This document shows positions 8,222-63,597 of a stretch of DNA of 64,000 nt, piece by piece (position 1 is the stretch's first letter; each line of letters starts with the position of its first letter). The notes under the pieces were generated by a model, which ran no database searches, was not told the origin of the DNA, and saw only the letters and a program-made list of their open reading frames with translations. This DNA comes from Bdellovibrio sp. NC01. Lineage in GTDB: Bacteria > Bdellovibrionota > Bdellovibrionia > Bdellovibrionales > Bdellovibrionaceae. The stretch lies in NCBI RefSeq assembly GCF_006874625.1, contig NZ_CP030034.1, forward strand, positions 3,038,001 to 3,102,000, given 5' to 3'. Made by a program: the position numbers and the translations under genes.

Positions 8222-8566
8222 CTAATCAGTGGATTCATCGTCTGACGGAATGTCTGACGAAGGTGTTGTGTCGTTCTGAGATGCTGACAGTTCTTCCAAT
8301 GCCATTTCTGCTCGGGTTTTGTAACCTTTTTTTGAGTTGCAGTCTTTGCAAGAAGGAACGCAGTTATTCTTTGTAGATTTGCCACCGCGGGCGATTGGAA
8401 TCAGATGGTCCATCGTTAATTCTGCGGGTTTAAAGCGATTTCCGCAATGATAACAGACACCTTTGCCGACTTCTTGTTTCCACCATTGGCTCATGCGCAG
8501 CTCGCGAGCTTTTGCTTTTTCCTTTTTTTGGTGGGCAGCCGGGGCCGCAGAAAAGAAGTAATCCAT
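8222..8566 (-). CDS. HNH endonuclease-family protein
   Basis: This is a 114-residue protein. The HNH core is complete: CYHCG, then LTMDHLIPIARGGK, then NNCVPSCKDCNSKKG. The four cysteines would hold a structural zinc, and the His in DHLIP and the Asn in NNC are the family's catalytic positions. I chose the ATG at 8566; a TTG 12 codons upstream is possible. The C-terminus is a Ser/Asp-rich tail. No restriction, phage or intron genes are near, so it is a stand-alone HNH protein of unknown target. Confidence 0.75.
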   Translation of the reverse strand: MDYFFSAAPAAHQKKEKAKARELRMSQWWKQEVGKGVCYHCGNRFKPAELTMDHLIPIARGGKSTKNNCVPSCKDCNSKKGYKTRAEMALEELSASQNDTTPSSDIPSDDESTD

Positions 8567-8719
8567 TGCGGATTTTATAGCGTAAATCGAGGTGAATCGC
8601 AATGGGCTTTGCCTGGAATGGAAACTCCAAGATCTAGACCAATATAGGGCTTCTAAACCTTCATTTTGAGGCCCTTTTTACCGATAGGATTCGAGAATAA
8701 ATTGCAGGAGTTGTGAGCT

Positions 8720-9868
8720 ATGTCTGTAAAAACCTTTAAAAAAGGCGAAGTGATCTACAAAGACGGCGATAAAATCACCGCTGTTTACCTGATTCAATCA
8801 GGTGGCGCCAGTCAGTGTTTGATCCGCGGAAAAAAGAATATCGATCTTTTCCAATTGGGTGCTTCCCATATTTTGGGTGACCAAGTGATCTTGGGTGCGA
8901 CAACTCATCCGACATCTGCCATCGCGACAACTGAAACGAAAGTTTTAGAAATCCCGGTAGAGACTTTGAAGTCTCACTACGAGGGCGCTCCGCAAATGTT
9001 GAAAGTAATCGTCAAATCATTGGCTGACCGTTTGCGTTTGGCGATGAATGACGTGCGTTCAGCAAAACTTGAAAAAGACTCTTCACCATGTCCTGAAGAC
9101 CAAGTGGCAAAAGCATTTGGCGCGGTTTTTCATACGGCAAATCACAAAGGCGATCGATCAACTCCAGGTCGCATTGTGGTCGAGTGGCCGATGATGAAGC
9201 AGTATTCACAACGTATTTTTGGTGAAGGCCCAAAACGTGTCGAGCAAGTGATTAACATTCTTGTGAAGCAGAAGCTTGCGTTATACGAAATGGGTAAAGC
9301 TCCTGACAATCCAGAAGGACCTGACGAGATTCAACGCGTTCACTTCTTGGATCTGGGTTTGCTTGAAAGCTTCTTTGAATTCTATCAATACTATTACTTC
9401 AAAGGCGGCCGTTCGGAGCTTTTGAAAGTCGATGAATTATGCCAACAAATGCTTGATGGTTTGTTGAAAATGGCTGACGGCCAAGAAGCCGATCGCTTCG
9501 GTGTCGTGGGTGTTGAATTCGCCAAATTCACTGAATACTGCAAAAACGAAATCGGCATTAACTTGAACAATGACCACTTTGCCCGTCTTGAAGGTAAAGG
9601 CGTGTTCATGAAAAGAAAAAACGCCAGCACGGGCGTTATTCTACAATTTGAAATCAAAGAGTTCCGTTCTATCTTCCAAAGCTGGAAAATGCTTCGCGAG
9701 ATCGAAAAATGGAACGAAAAAGGTTTCGTCGACATGGACGAAAAAGAAGAAAAGCCGAAGAAACGCGCCTCTGCGGGTGGCCCTGCCTGCCCTGCTTGTA
9801 GTGCGGAACTTCAAGCTGGCGCAAAATTCTGCAGCGAATGCGGTCACAAGATCGTAGCGGCGGCATAA
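8720..9868 (+). CDS. Cyclic nucleotide-binding-domain protein with C-terminal zinc ribbon
   Basis: The 382-residue protein begins with a cyclic nucleotide-binding fold (residues 1-120; FKKGEVIYKDGDK and the LGDQVILG turn). A helical middle region of about 200 residues follows. The end is a zinc ribbon (CPAC, 18 residues, CSEC) after a lysine-rich linker. There is no Crp-type helix-turn-helix that I can see in the middle region, so it may sense a ligand without being a classic DNA-binding regulator. AGGAG precedes the ATG. Its stop overlaps the start of a PilZ gene by one base (TAATG), so the two are translationally coupled and probably act together. Confidence 0.75.
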   Translation: MSVKTFKKGEVIYKDGDKITAVYLIQSGGASQCLIRGKKNIDLFQLGASHILGDQVILGATTHPTSAIATTETKVLEIPVETLKSHYEGAPQMLKVIVKSLADRLRLAMNDVRSAKLEKDSSPCPEDQVAKAFGAVFHTANHKGDRSTPGRIVVEWPMMKQYSQRIFGEGPKRVEQVINILVKQKLALYEMGKAPDNPEGPDEIQRVHFLDLGLLESFFEFYQYYYFKGGRSELLKVDELCQQMLDGLLKMADGQEADRFGVVGVEFAKFTEYCKNEIGINLNNDHFARLEGKGVFMKRKNASTGVILQFEIKEFRSIFQSWKMLREIEKWNEKGFVDMDEKEEKPKKRASAGGPACPACSAELQAGAKFCSECGHKIVAAA

Positions 9869-54144: not shown

Positions 54145-55032
54145 CTAGAATAGTGTCGGAATTGTTTGGTTGATCCAATCTTTGAACTCAAGCGCATTCG
54201 TGTAAACGCCCGTAGAGTTGCAAAGAAGGCTACCACGGCTTGTAACACCCCAAAGAAGGTATTGACCGTTGATTTGGATGAATGCTGGACCGCCAGAGTC
54301 ACCGCTGCAAGTGCCAGACTTACGCTCGTCCAAACGCACTTCAGTCTCTTGCAATGAAGAGATCGGTGCTTGGCCTTGACGAAGAAGACCGTCGCCGGAC
54401 ATTTCAACTTTCATGCAATTACGGTTGTTATCGTCGCAGAATACTTCACCGTCTTCGATAGCTTGATCTAGGTTTTTGTATTTTCTTGGATCGATTTGTG
54501 TCGCCTGAACGTCATCAACGCCATAACCAGCAACAGTCACCATCATGCCGCGTTTCAAAAGGTTCGTACCACCCAAGAAAGTCGCAGGCTTGTAACCCTC
54601 TGGCAGGGCGCCTTTAAAACGAACCAACGCGATATCGTTGCGATTGAATTCAGTTTCTTCATCATTTGGATTGTATTTGTCGTTCGCCTTGAAGCTTGTC
54701 ACCTGAAGCACGTGAGCTTGAAGAACGTCTTGTTCGCGGTTGCTCATCATATCGTCAACATTGTTCGCAAAAACAACTTTCATGTTAGATGCTTTAGAAG
54801 GCATACAGTGAGCCGCCGTCAAAACGATATTTGGAGCGATCAACGTACCTGTGCAGATGTATTGTTCTTTCGTATCGTACAAAGAAACGATACTTGCAGC
54901 GATAGAGGCGCCCTCTTTCACTTCTTGGCCGTTAATAATTGATGGCTTACCCGCAAGCTCAACGTTGTTCGAATTTTTAGGTGCGCAGGACACCAAAGCA
55001 ATCAACCCCAGGACCAAGACTGAACGGTTCAC
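54145..55032 (-). CDS. Trypsin-fold S1 serine protease, lipoprotein
   Basis: The 295-residue protein starts at a GTG with GGGGAGA upstream and has lipobox LVSC. The catalytic triad is complete: TAAHC (His75), NDIALVRF (Asp133) and GDSGGP (Ser246). The residue corresponding to trypsin 189 is Gly240, so a trypsin-like cleavage after Arg/Lys is not expected. It probably acts in the envelope. Secreted S1 proteases are expected in a predator (inference). Confidence 0.9.
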   Translation of the reverse strand: MNRSVLVLGLIALVSCAPKNSNNVELAGKPSIINGQEVKEGASIAASIVSLYDTKEQYICTGTLIAPNIVLTAAHCMPSKASNMKVVFANNVDDMMSNREQDVLQAHVLQVTSFKANDKYNPNDEETEFNRNDIALVRFKGALPEGYKPATFLGGTNLLKRGMMVTVAGYGVDDVQATQIDPRKYKNLDQAIEDGEVFCDDNNRNCMKVEMSGDGLLRQGQAPISSLQETEVRLDERKSGTCSGDSGGPAFIQINGQYLLWGVTSRGSLLCNSTGVYTNALEFKDWINQTIPTLF

Positions 55033-56816: not shown

Positions 56817-59800
56817 TTAAAGACTTACAGCTGGTTGGATCATTGGGTTCACGATGTCACCAGGGTTGTTACCGATGATGATACCGCGAGCTTTAGATCT
56901 TCTTAGCTTAGGATCGAATGGAAGACCTTTTTTGCTTGGAGCTGAGATTGCAATCCAGCGTCCAGAAGCATCTGTCTGCCATGCTCTGTAGTACATAGAC
57001 AATTTCGTACCTTCGATGAGGTAGTCAATTTGTACGCCAGGGCCTGCCATATCCATCGCAGCTTTGAATGTGAACGCATTCTCATTCATCGCTTCACCGA
57101 ATTCACCGTAAGCTGCAGCGAATGCTTTAGCGTCAGTGTTCATCGTTTTATACATGCGTTTCAATGCAGCATACATTCTGCCCATTGCACCACTTGTATT
57201 CGATTTCAATTGGTATTCGCAACTTGCTGTATTTGGATGTTCGCCGTTAGCAGCTGGGCAATACCAGTATGGATCGTTACGGTCCATATAGCCTGCAACC
57301 ATGCCGTTAGCTTTAGTTACGAACGTATCCTGAGTCGCACGTTGAGCAGCCATCATCAATCTCAATGTATTGTCGTCGCTGAAGTTAACGTTGAACTCAA
57401 CACCTGTGTAACCAAGATCTTGATCAGGAACATTGACATTCAATGCATCCAAACCAGTTTTCTTGATCAACTCGGCGATACCAGAGCGTAGACGAGAGCC
57501 ATTTGATTTCTCGTGACGGAATGCATAGCTGTACGTACCGAACATGCTATCCATTTTCGCGTGAGTATCCCAGTTCTCGATCGTGTATTTAGCACCGTAG
57601 AACATGAAATCTTTCTCTTTGTGTTTGAACCAGAAGCGTGAATCTTCCGATTGCGAGAAGATACCATAGTGCACACGTGCCGTATTACGATTGATGTACA
57701 AATCAGAAGTCGTGAACGATTGCACACGGCCTTTGCTGTATACTTTATCCCAGATAATAGGGATAGAGAATGCAGCACTTACGACAGAACCAGAGCTAAC
57801 AGTTCTGAATGTCGCAACTTTTTGTACTGGAGCCGCTTCAACCAAGTTTCTTGGTTTCTCTGATGCCAACTGCTCAGATGAGTACGCATTACCACGAATC
57901 ATATCTTCGTAAGCTTTACGTCCTGTCTCTGTGCTCAAGTCGAACAAGTATGAGAATCCATCGTCGGCTGAGTTGAAGTAATTTTTCGAAATAGTCAGGA
58001 TCGAAGCACTTGCAAACACTGACAATGACTCTAGTTTACCACTTGTCATTTTCACGTATGCTTTGTTCGCGCCAACTTTTTCAACATAAGTTTCCCAAGT
58101 ACCTTTCGCCAAGCGAGCTGCGCCCACTCCGACAGGTCCTAAGCCAGCACTTGCACTGAAGACCACGCCACCGTGACCAACATAAGTGATGCTGTCACCT
58201 GGATCCCAACGGTTCAAATCCGTTGCCGATTCAGGAATTTCGTTACGTCCACCCATATCGTATGCTTTGCCCAGAGTGCTTACATAACGAGTTGATTGAG
58301 TGTCTTTACCTACGACAGGCAATACGCCCACGTAAGCCCAGAAGCTTTGATGCCAGCCTGTCGCATTTTCAAACCAGAATCTGATTTGTGCGCCAAGACC
58401 CACTTCGAGACTGCCGTAAACAGTTTTTTGGAAACCGTCGCGGTAGTCGCCATACACCAATGAATCTGTCGCTGCTTTTGAATCGTACGCTTCCAAAACT
58501 GCTTTTGGTTGCGGACCACCCATTTGCGGCGTCAAGTTGATGATGTAAGAACCGAAGTCGAATGATAGATGGAACAAAGGCTCCAACTTATGACGAAGTT
58601 TATTTTTCTCTTCTTTGCTTCCAGTTGTAGCTGTAGCTGAAGTAGCAGTCGAAGTAGAAGTTGACGTCGACTCTGTGCCTGTCGTCGCAGTTGAAGTCGA
58701 CTGTTCGCCAGTTGTTGCTGTCGAAGTTGCAGTCGTCACCGTCGCCGTTGTAGCCGTCGAAGTTGCAGTTGTTACCGTTGCAGTCGAAGTGACTTCACCA
58801 GTCGTGTATCCAGTTGTGTAACCCGTCGTTGAATACCCTGTAGAGTATCCTGTCGAGTGACCTGTTGAATGACCGTCTGTGTGACCATCAGTACGTCCGT
58901 CAGTATGGCCATTTGAGTAACCATCTGTCTTACCGTCTGAGTGACCGTTCGTGCGACCTGTCGAGTTTTGTTGACCGTCAGAATGGCCATCAGTTCTACC
59001 GTTCGTGTAGCCTGAAGTTTTACCATCTGAGTGACCATCGGTACGACCATCGGAATGACCGTTAGTGTAGCCGCTCGTTTTACCATCAGAATGACCGCCA
59101 TCAGTACGACCATCTGTATGACCGTTAGTTCCACCATTAGTGTAACCAGTTGAGCCATTTTGGTGACCGTTTGAGTGACCATTCGAATTGCCGTTTGCAT
59201 TTCCATTAGCGTTGCCATTTGAGTTGCCATTCGCATTACCGTTGGCGTTACCGTTAGCATTGCCGTTTGAATTGCCATTCGCATTACCGTTGGCATTACC
59301 ATTCGTGAAACCATTAGATCCACCATTAGTGCGACCATTTGAGTTTCCGTTGGCGTTACCATTGGCGTTGCCGTTCGAATTGCCATTGGCATTACCGTTC
59401 GCATTTCCGTTTGAGCCACCGCTTGTTGAACCAACAACAGTTGCAGCTACAGAAGTACGACCATTTGAATTGCCGTTTGCATTTCCATTGGCGTTACCAT
59501 TCGCATTACCGTTAGCGTTTCCGTTTGAGCCACCGCTTGTTGAACCAACAACAGTCGCCGCTACAGATGAACCACCATTTGAGTTACCATTCGCATTGCC
59601 ATTTGCATTACCATTAGCATTTCCGTTTGAACCACCGCTTGTTGAACCAACAACAGTCGCCGCTACAGAGCTTCCGCCTGAGCCACCACTTGTTGAGCCA
59701 GCAACAGTTGCTGCCACAGATGAACGACCATTTGAATTGCCGTTCGCATTGCCATTTGCGTTGCCATTCGAACCGCCGCTAGTAGAACCAGCCACAGTTG

Positions 59801-60344
59801 CTGCAACAGAACTACCACCACTGAAGCCAGTTGAACCACCGACAACAGTTGCAGCAACAGAAGAGCCACCGCTTGAAGAACCGCCTGAAGACGATCCACC
59901 CGAAGAAGATCCACCAGAGAATCCAGTTGATCCACCTACAACAGTCGCAGCTACAGAAGAGCGACCATTTGAATTTCCGTTAGCATTGCCATTCGCATTG
60001 CCGTTTGAGCTTCCACTCGAACCACCACTTGTAGATCCGACTACAGTTGCAGCGACAGATCCGCCCGTGGAACCACCTACGACTGTGGCTGCAACAGATC
60101 CTCCAGTCGAACCACCGACAACGGTGGCTGCGACTGACGATCGACCATTAGAATTTCCATTCGATCCGCCAGAAGAAGAGCTTCCTCCTCCATTAGCTGC
60201 CTTCGGTACAGGCATGCTCTGCTCGTTATTCGAAGTTTGCGTCGTCTTACTTCCATACGGAAGTAGACTTAACTGCGCCCACGTCGGATTCGCGATCAGA
60301 GTAATACCAGCAGCGAGGAATGCCTTCCTATATGCTACTTTCAT
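56817..60344 (-). CDS. Large exported repeat-rich protein
   Basis: The 1175-residue protein has a signal peptide (cleavage near TWAQ). Residues ~48-572 are low complexity. First come ten copies of VAATV[V/A]G joined by Gly/Ser and Asn-Gly runs (NGNANGNANGNSNG). Then (~390-515) come tetrads such as DGRT, DGHS, NGHT and TGYS, and then a Thr/Ala/Ser-rich stretch. The remaining 600 residues (from KLRHKLEPLF) form a distinct folded region that I do not recognise, with strand-like patterns. It is likely a surface or secreted protein. Repeats are in frame and multiples of three bases long, so copy number can vary without frameshift. Confidence 0.8.
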   Translation of the reverse strand: MKVAYRKAFLAAGITLIANPTWAQLSLLPYGSKTTQTSNNEQSMPVPKAANGGGSSSSGGSNGNSNGRSSVAATVVGGSTGGSVAATVVGGSTGGSVAATVVGSTSGGSSGSSNGNANGNANGNSNGRSSVAATVVGGSTGFSGGSSSGGSSSGGSSSGGSSVAATVVGGSTGFSGGSSVAATVAGSTSGGSNGNANGNANGNSNGRSSVAATVAGSTSGGSGGSSVAATVVGSTSGGSNGNANGNANGNANGNSNGGSSVAATVVGSTSGGSNGNANGNANGNANGNANGNSNGRTSVAATVVGSTSGGSNGNANGNANGNSNGNANGNANGNSNGRTNGGSNGFTNGNANGNANGNSNGNANGNANGNANGNSNGNANGNANGNSNGHSNGHQNGSTGYTNGGTNGHTDGRTDGGHSDGKTSGYTNGHSDGRTDGHSDGKTSGYTNGRTDGHSDGQQNSTGRTNGHSDGKTDGYSNGHTDGRTDGHTDGHSTGHSTGYSTGYSTTGYTTGYTTGEVTSTATVTTATSTATTATVTTATSTATTGEQSTSTATTGTESTSTSTSTATSATATTGSKEEKNKLRHKLEPLFHLSFDFGSYIINLTPQMGGPQPKAVLEAYDSKAATDSLVYGDYRDGFQKTVYGSLEVGLGAQIRFWFENATGWHQSFWAYVGVLPVVGKDTQSTRYVSTLGKAYDMGGRNEIPESATDLNRWDPGDSITYVGHGGVVFSASAGLGPVGVGAARLAKGTWETYVEKVGANKAYVKMTSGKLESLSVFASASILTISKNYFNSADDGFSYLFDLSTETGRKAYEDMIRGNAYSSEQLASEKPRNLVEAAPVQKVATFRTVSSGSVVSAAFSIPIIWDKVYSKGRVQSFTTSDLYINRNTARVHYGIFSQSEDSRFWFKHKEKDFMFYGAKYTIENWDTHAKMDSMFGTYSYAFRHEKSNGSRLRSGIAELIKKTGLDALNVNVPDQDLGYTGVEFNVNFSDDNTLRLMMAAQRATQDTFVTKANGMVAGYMDRNDPYWYCPAANGEHPNTASCEYQLKSNTSGAMGRMYAALKRMYKTMNTDAKAFAAAYGEFGEAMNENAFTFKAAMDMAGPGVQIDYLIEGTKLSMYYRAWQTDASGRWIAISAPSKKGLPFDPKLRRSKARGIIIGNNPGDIVNPMIQPAVSL
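58800..60180. repeat. In-frame coding repeats of the large secreted protein
   Basis: Tandem short units (about 12 bases, encoding NGNA-type tetrads) and longer VAATVVG blocks make up this stretch. It reads as protein on the minus strand; the plus strand carries long shadow frames rich in Pro, Leu and Phe. Confidence 0.75.
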
Positions 60345-60504
60345 GTATCCTCCAAAAAATTGGGTTGTTGTTTTGTGCGTGAAGCAACTTTTAACTAACC
60401 TTTGATTTTTGGATAGCGAAATTGATTTGATGTCTGTCTTTTAATTTTTTGCAGATTCAAAATATTTTTCAGAAGTGAAATGTAAAAAACAATTTTGAAA
60501 AAAT

Positions 60505-60539
60505 AAAAAACGCCGAGGTGATTAAGCTCGGCGTTTTTT
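60505..60539 (-). terminator. Terminator after the HTTM gene
   Basis: Hairpin CGCCGAG/CTCGGCG with A6/T7 flanks, 29 bases after the HTTM stop on the minus strand. Confidence 0.8.
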
Positions 60540-60567: not shown

Positions 60568-61524
60568 TTATTCAGCAGTAACAGAGTTCAAAATTGAAAT
60601 CTCCTTGTTCGCAAATCTTTCTTTCAGTTTACCACGAACCCACTGATCAATTTTTTCCGCATCGAATGGTTCAATCATCAAGCCCATCGCGGCGATCATC
60701 ACCCATTCAAACATCGGAATATTCATTACGACTTCAATACCAAGATGCAAGCCGAGACCCGCGAGCAAAACCCAGTAACGAAGTTCTTTGATCCACACCA
60801 GAGTACCTAACGAGAATTCAGTAATCAAAGTGCCCCAAGTTAATAGCTTAATGATCACCAGATTATTAAGAAGTGGAAGTGGTATGCGCACAAACTCATC
60901 CAAGCGAGTCGCGATATAAATCGCCGTACCATCAGCCCAATAAGTACCTTTCATCTTAAACAGTACCGTCGATACATAAATAAGACAGAACTGAATCTGC
61001 ATCAAACGCAAACCCCAAGGCGCACGCAAAGCTGGAATCTCTGGTGCAAGACCACGCACACGCGCGATCAAACGATCCAAAGAGTAAGCTTCACCGGCTG
61101 GAGTGAACATCATAAAGAACAATAAATTGCGCAAGACTAAATCTGAACTATTCAGAATAAAGACATTTCGGTTGTGGAATGACATAACCGTCAGGAACGC
61201 AAACAAGATGGATGTACGGGTAAAAAGACCGAACGTCACACCCAACGCCGCAGCAAGATTCAGTAAGGCAACGAAAGTTGCCGTGCGCGGATCATTCGGC
61301 AACCAATCGAAGAAACTAAATCGCCAATCAGATCCATAAATCTGTGAAGTGTTCAAAGAAACCAAACCATTCGTTCCCCAGAAAACTTCAAGATGTGTCC
61401 ACGTCATGTACCAGTTCGCAAGAAGAAGCAAACCAAACAGCACACGAACCGCTGCCACGGATTGAACTGGCACGGGTTTAAAGAAAAATTCGCGAACGGA
61501 ATTAACGATTGATGTTAGCTTCAT
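60568..61524 (-). CDS. HTTM-domain membrane protein
   Basis: The 318-residue protein has the HTTM layout shared with vitamin K-dependent gamma-carboxylases: AAVRVLFGLLLLANWYMTWT, SFHNRNVFILNSSDLVLRNL, and RLMQIQFCLIYVSTVLFKMK with TYWADGTAIYIATRLDEF. HTTM proteins are multi-pass with roles not well defined. It overlaps the upstream partner by 23 bases. Confidence 0.82.
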   Translation of the reverse strand: MKLTSIVNSVREFFFKPVPVQSVAAVRVLFGLLLLANWYMTWTHLEVFWGTNGLVSLNTSQIYGSDWRFSFFDWLPNDPRTATFVALLNLAAALGVTFGLFTRTSILFAFLTVMSFHNRNVFILNSSDLVLRNLLFFMMFTPAGEAYSLDRLIARVRGLAPEIPALRAPWGLRLMQIQFCLIYVSTVLFKMKGTYWADGTAIYIATRLDEFVRIPLPLLNNLVIIKLLTWGTLITEFSLGTLVWIKELRYWVLLAGLGLHLGIEVVMNIPMFEWVMIAAMGLMIEPFDAEKIDQWVRGKLKERFANKEISILNSVTAE

Positions 61525-62098
61525 ATTTCACCTTCTGAGGTTCTGTCGGAATGAAATGGAAAACAGCTTCAGTTTGATATTCTGTGCTCATTTGCCCATG
61601 CGGAATAAATTTTTCTTGTGGCGGCTTCACGATATTGAAATGACGATAGAATTGAAGCTCTTTGATTTCGCGATGTTTACCCTGGTTTTCAAGGTTCACA
61701 ACTTCACGAGCAACAAAGCGAGACATATCGAACCACACTTCCGATTTTTCCATCGGAACTAAATTTTCTTGCGAATATTTGCGGAAGCGTTCGCCACCTA
61801 AAAGTTTTTCCCATGAAGGCATGCGTGACGGGCGAGGAAACGTCCAACGTTCCTTAGAGCCGTCTTTGAATGTGATCTCGGCATCAAGATACGCATTCAC
61901 GTTCGCCGGATTCGGAGCAAACATGCTCCACATCTGATCCAGAGCGAAGAACGTCTGATATCGCCAGAGAACATTTAAAATATTATCTCCCACGGCACTT
62001 CTATCTGGAAGAGATGCCGTCGCCATCAACACGACATTGAGTGTGATGAATAAAGAGATCGCGACAAATTTCACTTTATGAAAAAGTTTGACCACCAT
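61502..62098 (-). CDS. HTTM partner protein
   Basis: The 198-residue protein has one N-terminal membrane segment (KFVAISLFITLNVVLMATA) and a conserved-looking MWSMFAPNPANVNAYLDAEI then WTFPRP stretch. Such proteins sit beside HTTM genes in many bacteria. The ATG at 62098 with AAGGGG upstream is used. It overlaps the HTTM gene, so they are translated together and probably form a complex. Confidence 0.75.
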   Translation of the reverse strand: MVVKLFHKVKFVAISLFITLNVVLMATASLPDRSAVGDNILNVLWRYQTFFALDQMWSMFAPNPANVNAYLDAEITFKDGSKERWTFPRPSRMPSWEKLLGGERFRKYSQENLVPMEKSEVWFDMSRFVAREVVNLENQGKHREIKELQFYRHFNIVKPPQEKFIPHGQMSTEYQTEAVFHFIPTEPQKVKYEANINR

Positions 62099-62240
62099 AA
62101 ATACCCCTTGAATGTTGGCTAACATCCGAAGGAATCTAGTAAACACTTAGTGATCTGTGCAACGACGAAGACGACAAGAAGAATTAAACTTCATCCACCA
62201 ATCTTTCCCATCCTTAATCTGCGCGTGAATTTCAAAAAAA

Positions 62241-62790: not shown

Positions 62791-63597
62791 ATGAAGCGAT
62801 CTTTAAAAATTTTAAGCATTATCACAGTGATTTTCTTTAATATCGCGGCCCATGCCGAAAGCATCGCCGATAAAAAAATCAATGGCGTACGCTTGTATGA
62901 TGTTTTTAAAAATCAAGGCATTTCAGAAACAGCTCTGCAACGTGCTCTTGAATTCATGGATAATAACGCAGGCAAAACCGTGCGTGTAAAAGCAAAGGTT
63001 CGTCCTGCCGAAGGTGAAGCTTACATGACGGACAAGGCTTTCGCGGTTCAATCTAAGAACCTTGCGATCATTGACTTCTCTTTACCTTCAGACCAGCGCC
63101 GCTTGTTCGTTATGAACTTGGAAACTGGTGTTGTGAATAAGTATTTCGTTGCGCACGGTAAAGGTTCGGGCGTTCGTTTAGCGACTAAATTCTCTAACCT
63201 TGATGGTTCAAAAATGTCTTCGCTAGGTTTCTATCTTGCGGGCTCTGTTTATTACGGCGGTCATGGCGAATCTTTGAACCTTCATGGTCTTGAGAAATCA
63301 AATGACCAAGCAGCTTCTCGCGATATCGTTATGCACGGTGCGAACTATGTGTCTCAAGACTTCGTAGATTCCAGCGGTCGTTTGGGTCGTAGCTGGGGCT
63401 GCCCAGCCGTTTCACCAGCGATCATTAAAAAGATGATTCCACTCTTTAAAGAAGGTGGCGTGATTTACGCCTACCAAAAAGACTTGATGACGTCGACTCA
63501 ATCAACTCCGACATTGCAAGAAGTAAAAGCGGATCAACCAGACGAAGCTGACGTAGATTTGCCAAATGAAGAAGAAGACTTCCAGGCTAAGAAATAA
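62791..63597 (+). CDS. Secreted murein L,D-transpeptidase-like protein (YkuD fold)
   Basis: The 268-residue protein has a signal peptide and the L,D-transpeptidase core: VMHGAN (His182) and SWGCPAVS (nucleophile Cys204). It is of the YkuD_2 type, with KFSNLDGSKMSSLGFYLAG before the core. These enzymes link or anchor wall peptides in the periplasm. GAGAGAGG precedes the ATG. The acidic C-terminal tail (DEADVDLPNEEED) is unusual. Cell-wall remodelling during predation is inference. Confidence 0.85.
   Translation: MKRSLKILSIITVIFFNIAAHAESIADKKINGVRLYDVFKNQGISETALQRALEFMDNNAGKTVRVKAKVRPAEGEAYMTDKAFAVQSKNLAIIDFSLPSDQRRLFVMNLETGVVNKYFVAHGKGSGVRLATKFSNLDGSKMSSLGFYLAGSVYYGGHGESLNLHGLEKSNDQAASRDIVMHGANYVSQDFVDSSGRLGRSWGCPAVSPAIIKKMIPLFKEGGVIYAYQKDLMTSTQSTPTLQEVKADQPDEADVDLPNEEEDFQAKK

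What the first reader, a model, noticed from the sequence alone, without database searches (positions are those of the whole stretch)
56817..60344. Exported giant with three kinds of repeats and an unknown 600-residue C-terminal domain
The N-terminal half has ten VAATV[V/A]G blocks, Asn-Gly runs (NGNANG), then tetrads with period four (DGRT, DGHS, NGHT, TGYS) and a Thr-rich stretch. This is unlike RTX or ordinary collagen repeats. Regular Asx-Gly tetrads could form a fibre or bind ions, which is speculation. The C-terminal half has no family I know. It may be a surface or attachment protein.
Basis: partly seen in the sequence, partly recalled or inferred. Interest (0 to 1): 0.65.

Follow-up and report, generated by a model that had tools for sequence, protein, structure and literature searches.

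The report
Stalked outer-surface protein of Bdellovibrio predators
This Bdellovibrio gene encodes an exported protein with a long, fast-changing repeat stalk, usually collagen-like in its relatives but four-residue here, joined to a conserved, uncatalogued 595-residue domain that is probably an outer-membrane barrel and occurs across the predator-containing phylum Bdellovibrionota.

Summary
Confirmed: 56817-60344(-) encodes a 1175-aa exported protein with ten VAATV[VA]G blocks, 32 NGN[AS] units, Asx-Gly tetrads, a Thr-rich tract and a 595-aa C-terminal domain without Pfam, NCBIfam or PDB match. Adjacent NGN[AS] units keep the amino acids while third codon positions agree in only 8-60%, so the pattern is old or maintained, not fresh slippage. 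Relatives change the picture. The C-domain occurs in 98 of 369 Bdellovibrionota genomes tested, in 40 of 182 genera. The stalk before it is interchangeable: 16 of 20 orthologues carry Gly-X-Y repeats (two tested pass Pfam Collagen), others five-residue repeats or none; the window protein has period four and fails Pfam Collagen. Orthologues with 98-99% identical C-domains have stalks 68-91% identical that differ in length by 44-120 residues. One AlphaFold2 model (pLDDT 67) folds the C-domain as long antiparallel strands; its best structural matches are nearly all outer-membrane barrels, autotransporter translocators first (Z 12.6); a second model failed. Best reading: barrel-anchored stalk protein, probably surface-displayed. 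A SdpB-like HTTM gene adjoins the family in Bdellovibrio and in five other genera, more than chance. Orientation, partner and function are untested.

The parts
60276..60344 (-). Sec signal peptide (aa 1-23, MKVAYRKAFLAAGITLIANPTWA)
   Evidence: sequence; similar signal peptides at the start of orthologues with intact 5' ends; no lipobox Cys
59430..60134 (-). stalk part 1: ten SVAATV[VA]G blocks between Gly/Ser and NGNA runs (aa 71-305)
   Evidence: comparable hydrophobic blocks in stalks of L032, L033, L048 and L152, absent in several others
59148..59423 (-). stalk part 2: 23 consecutive Asn-Gly tetrads, mostly NGNA/NGNS (aa 308-399)
   Evidence: Gly period 4
58800..59147 (-). stalk part 3: mixed tetrads DGRT/DGHS/NGHT/TGYS (aa 400-515)
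   Evidence: TGYSTGYTTG repeats occupy the same place in several orthologues
58611..58799 (-). Thr/Ser-rich stretch before the domain (aa 516-578)
   Evidence: sequence; Thr/Ser-rich tract at the same place in most orthologues
56817..58604 (-). conserved C-terminal domain (aa 581-1175), Bdellovibrionota-wide family without Pfam entry
57381..58604 (-). predicted beta part of the C-domain (domain residues 1-408): 13 strands of 13-22 residues
   Evidence: one AlphaFold2 model, pLDDT 67
57045..57377 (-). predicted helical part of the C-domain (residues 410-520) with two invariant Cys (C449, C462)
   Evidence: helices also in the weak second model
60459..60486 (-). sigma-70-like promoter candidate upstream of the gene
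   Evidence: 9 of 12 matches, no more than chance expects
60497..60533 (-). intrinsic terminator between the HTTM gene and this gene; suggests a separate transcription unit
   Evidence: z -4.9
60568..61524 (-). HTTM-domain membrane protein (SdpB-like), conserved neighbour, possible partner
61502..62146 (-). DUF5819-like protein with WSMFAPNP motif, partner of the HTTM gene

Best explanation
A secreted stalk-and-anchor protein. Sec exports it (inferred from the signal peptide). The C-terminal ~590 residues form an outer-membrane beta-barrel (inferred from one model) with a helical, disulfide-stabilised appendage (inferred from two invariant Cys). The Gly-rich N-terminal repeat region is a long hydrophilic stalk, displayed outside the cell through or beside the barrel, as the N-terminal passenger of an autotransporter is (inferred). 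Selection keeps stalk length and general composition, not one repeat type: Gly-X-Y in most orthologues, Asx-Gly tetrads here (shown by comparison). The stalk changes fast while the anchor stays constant (shown), as expected for a surface-exposed contact or spacer layer.
For: Signal peptide and domain order conserved in orthologues. C-domain conserved, 57-70% in orthologues, and phylum-wide. Stalk type varies on a near-constant domain; close pairs have 98-99% identical domains but stalks 68-91% identical with 54-126 gapped positions. AF2 model: 13 strands, mostly 16-22 residues long; VIA-align ranks NalP Z 12.6, EspP 11.9, Hbp 11.4, AIDA-I 11.0, with OmpG and porins among and after them, against a typical best Z of 7-8 for models without a clear match; Foldseek's best rows are outer-membrane barrels too. 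No lipobox or LPXTG seen, so a barrel would supply the missing anchor. Some relatives are signal peptide plus domain without repeats (L063, L064, L111, L139), so the domain is the core and the stalk an add-on.
Against: The barrel rests on one shallow-alignment model (7 sequences, mean pLDDT 67; the other four models 44-53), no Foldseek hit under E 0.001, and the second run failed (pLDDT 50). My amphipathicity score did not separate OmpF from TolB. No conserved C-terminal aromatic beta-signal across subfamilies. With an even strand number the N-terminal stalk starts in the periplasm, so surface display needs passage through the pore or another route: not shown. Helical residues 410-520 have no counterpart in autotransporter translocators.
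Confidence: 0.5

Rival explanations
1. Periplasmic stalk: the C-domain is an outer-membrane barrel but the N-terminal repeats stay in the periplasm, reaching towards peptidoglycan as a spacer or tether.
For: An even-stranded barrel has its N-terminus in the periplasm; an L,D-transpeptidase gene lies nearby (62791-63597) and stays nearby in many orthologues.
Against: Stalk length varies widely between close relatives and some relatives lack it; a periplasmic ruler should keep its length. The transpeptidase is a separate gene on the other strand.
Confidence: 0.2
2. Soluble secreted or surface fibre: the C-domain is a folded (perhaps trimeric) head and the Gly-rich stalk a collagen-like shaft.
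For: Orthologue stalks pass Pfam Collagen, and collagen-like regions occur in bacterial surface proteins that bind matrix proteins (PMC6755704, PMC7682875).
Against: The window protein has lost the Gly-X-Y pattern (longest run 2), which a triple helix needs; no anchor would be left; the model resembles membrane barrels.
Confidence: 0.2
3. The protein is a substrate of the neighbouring HTTM/DUF5819 pair, which modifies or processes it after export, as SdpA/SdpB are required to process SdpC in Bacillus. (Compatible with the best explanation.)
For: HTTM genes lie beside the family in most Bdellovibrio loci and in five other genera with changed gene order; chance expectation 0.1-0.7. The window HTTM hits SdpB TIGR04033, below cut-off; SdpA/SdpB role from PMC6818787.
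Against: Most family members elsewhere have no HTTM neighbour; in the window a strong terminator separates the genes; no conserved processing site seen.
Confidence: 0.2
4. The repeats are neutral low-complexity expansion with no selected function; only the C-domain matters.
For: Stalk type and length vary, and some paralogues lack it.
Against: Third positions in NGN[AS] units are scrambled while the amino-acid pattern holds, and an unbroken Gly-X-Y run of 112 triplets persists in orthologue L048.
Confidence: 0.1

Closest known systems
Classical (type Va) autotransporters such as NalP, EspP, AIDA-I
   Same: Signal peptide, N-terminal variable passenger, C-terminal domain modelled as an outer-membrane barrel; best structural matches.
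   Different: C-domain about 590 aa against translocators of about 280-300 aa; extra helical part; no Pfam match; low-complexity passenger; no universal C-terminal beta-signal.
VtaA trimeric autotransporters with collagen-like repeats (PMC6755704)
   Same: Collagen-like repeats within a passenger and a C-terminal translocator barrel.
   Different: No sequence match to any Pfam family in the C-domain; the window protein lacks Gly-X-Y; trimerisation untested.
Bucl8, outer-membrane protein with a collagen-like extracellular region (PMC7682875)
   Same: Outer-membrane protein carrying a collagen-like stretch whose repeat number varies between isolates.
   Different: Bucl8 has tandem OEP domains followed by the collagen region; here the stalk is N-terminal and the domain has no Pfam match.
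MAT fibre proteins of Bdellovibrio (PMC10769870)
   Same: Variable surface fibres of the same genus.
   Different: No PHROGs match above noise for the C-domain; direct comparison with MAT sequences not made.

Membership tests
Pfam Collagen (PF01391) collagen-like proteins | Gly-X-Y repeats that pass the Pfam gathering score | tested here: not met
   Window protein: no Pfam hit, longest G-X-Y run 2. Orthologues L036 and L045 do pass (121.5 and 75.3 bits against 27.2).
Classical autotransporter (type Va) | Pfam autotransporter beta-domain by sequence | tested here: not met
   No Pfam family for P0002, and no autotransporter family for any of 27 family members.
Classical autotransporter (type Va) | C-terminal 12-stranded outer-membrane barrel | tested here: inconclusive
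   One model of moderate confidence matches translocator barrels at Z 11-12.6; second model failed.
Classical autotransporter (type Va) | C-terminal aromatic residue (beta-signal) | tested here: inconclusive
   Many orthologues end in F or Y, the window protein ends in L and other subfamilies differ.
Classical autotransporter (type Va) | passenger exposed on the cell surface | not testable with these tools
   Needs localisation.
RTX proteins | nonapeptide Ca-binding repeats and type I export without a cleavable signal peptide | tested here: not met
   Period 4, not 9, and an N-terminal signal peptide.
MAT fibre proteins | phage-fibre-like trimeric modules | tested here: inconclusive
   Only PHROGs was searched (one hit at E 0.23).
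SdpABC-type maturation system | HTTM protein of the SdpB family beside its exported substrate | tested here: inconclusive
   SdpB model hit at 49.7 bits against a cut-off of 178.4; adjacency shown, substrate relation not.

The most novel reading that the evidence does not exclude
A phylum-wide class of barrel-anchored stalk proteins in Bdellovibrionota, whose stalks switch between collagen triplets and other Gly-rich repeats on one conserved anchor, and which are matured by dedicated HTTM/DUF5819 membrane enzymes related to SdpB.
Probability: 0.17. Interest if true: 0.75.

Novelty: new variant of a known kind. Interest (0 to 1): 0.5.

Why it matters
It defines an uncatalogued domain family found in 40 of 182 Bdellovibrionota genera sampled, a candidate addition to the few known surface components of bacterial predators. 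It also gives a natural series in which one anchor carries stalks of period 3, 4, 5 or none, so the question whether bacterial collagen-like repeats are kept for the triple helix or only as a spacer can be tested with close orthologues. The HTTM link, if real, would offer a candidate substrate for a widespread membrane-protein family of mostly unknown bacterial function.

Tried and rejected
RTX reading: rejected (period 4, signal peptide). Phage or plasmid origin: no tblastn match in phages or plasmids and none confirmed in viral contigs. Second structure prediction with a divergent member first: failed, pLDDT 50. Strand amphipathicity as a test of the barrel: useless, since OmpF and TolB scored alike. 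Profile search against PDB sequences: nothing. Literature for the HD100 orthologue: no paper found naming it; the Bd number could not be fixed. Operon with the HTTM gene in the window: set aside because of a strong terminator.

Full report
Observation. The ORF at 56817-60344 on the minus strand encodes 1175 residues with a ribosome-binding site and a Sec-type signal peptide. Gly recurs with period four. In 25 adjacent NGN[AS] pairs the first two codon positions always agree (apart from A/S), while third positions agree in 40, 36, 60 and 8%, so the amino-acid pattern has outlived the DNA repeat.

The C-domain is a family of its own. It has no match in Pfam, NCBIfam or PDB sequences. In the window's genus 21 of 24 genomes have it; 19 of these, besides the window's own, hold an orthologue at 57-70% identity, and there are paralogous groups near 34% and 25%. 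In the order 32 of 141 genomes match, in the phylum 98 of 369, from 40 of 182 genera. Named loci belong to Bdellovibrio and other Bdellovibrionota. The window genome has a second, distant member at C1:703237-704904. Two Cys (449, 462) are invariant in the 27 members aligned.

The stalk is interchangeable. Of 20 orthologues 16 carry Gly-X-Y triplets, some as (GNN)n, some as charged GDKGERG; L036 (from the genome whose length, 3,782,950, is the one I recall for B. bacteriovorus HD100) and L045 pass Pfam Collagen at 121.5 and 75.3 bits against 27.2. The window protein does not. Gly autocorrelation peaks at lag 3 in the former, at lag 4 in the window, at lag 5 in L047; L049 has no repeat. On the domain tree the tetrad protein lies beside Gly-X-Y orthologues, nearest to L031, though the deepest forks are open, so loss of the triplet pattern in the window's lineage is likely but not proven. 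L033, L035 and L036 have 98-99% identical domains but stalks 68-84% identical with 54-126 gapped positions. Paralogues use NGNS tetrads, Pro-rich or NGGG repeats; distant relatives use NGNRNSG-like, DTGG or Ser-rich repeats, or none. Hydrophobic blocks like VAATVVG recur in some orthologue stalks and are absent from others.

Fold. One AlphaFold2 model from seven sequences (pLDDT 67.4, pTM 0.62; the other four models 44-53) shows 13 antiparallel strands, mostly 16-22 residues, in residues 1-408 and helices in 410-520. Foldseek gives no hit under E 0.001, but its best rows are mostly outer-membrane barrels. VIA-align ranks autotransporter translocators first (NalP Z 12.6 over 204 residues at 4.1 A), with OmpG and porins among and after them. 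A second prediction with L098 first failed, and an amphipathicity test was uninformative. The barrel is therefore probable, not shown.

Neighbourhood. Upstream on the same strand lie a DUF5819-like gene and an HTTM gene, syntenic in most orthologues. A strong terminator separates them from this gene. HTTM genes also adjoin the family outside the genus: directly downstream in L110, L115 and L122 as fusions with a C-terminal part resembling the DUF5819-like partner, in L100 as a separate pair, convergent in L112; G178 and G047 likewise by coordinates. That is seven of 77 genomes, five of 39 genera, against 0.1-0.7 expected, by a rough Poisson estimate that ignores shared ancestry. In Bacillus, SdpA and SdpB are required to process exported SdpC (PMC6818787). 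Whether this pair acts on the stalk protein is unknown.

Mechanism. Most likely Sec export, insertion of the C-domain in the outer membrane and display of the stalk outside. Shown: domain order, conservation pattern, stalk turnover. Inferred: export, barrel, orientation, disulfide, surface role. The interest lies in the phylum-wide uncatalogued domain and the swap of collagen triplets for tetrads on one anchor; the category of a stalked surface protein is itself known.

Noticed in passing
L151:7880-8668(+) with L034:8073-10772(+) (G015); L152 about 8410-9530(+) with L039:7877-9937(+) (G006): In two genomes the orthologue is split inside the GNN repeats: signal peptide and collagen part stay beside the HTTM genes, the C-domain part lies elsewhere without signal peptide. 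Rearrangement or misassembly.
   Followed up: partly
window 59188-60405(+): 405-aa antisense ORF rich in LPFALP, most likely a by-product of codon use in the repeats.
   Followed up: no
L032, L033, L035, L036, L041: Two convergent DUF5819-HTTM pairs lie back to back upstream of the orthologue, where the window has one pair.
   Followed up: partly
L115:8242-9999(+): HTTM-like membrane protein with a DCC1-like thiol-disulfide oxidoreductase stretch and a WNMFAPKP motif in one 585-aa protein; the Pfam hits are below cut-off.
   Followed up: partly
L063, L064, L139: Repeat-less family members sit beside GH44-like genes (L064 proteins tested in Pfam) and surface-polysaccharide-type genes.
   Followed up: partly
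L154:3492-6007(+): Two adjacent Gly-rich, partly collagen-like exported proteins in G005, apparently unrelated to the C-domain family.
   Followed up: no
window 54145-55032(-): Trypsin-like protease with a signal sequence, syntenic with this gene in many orthologues.
   Followed up: no
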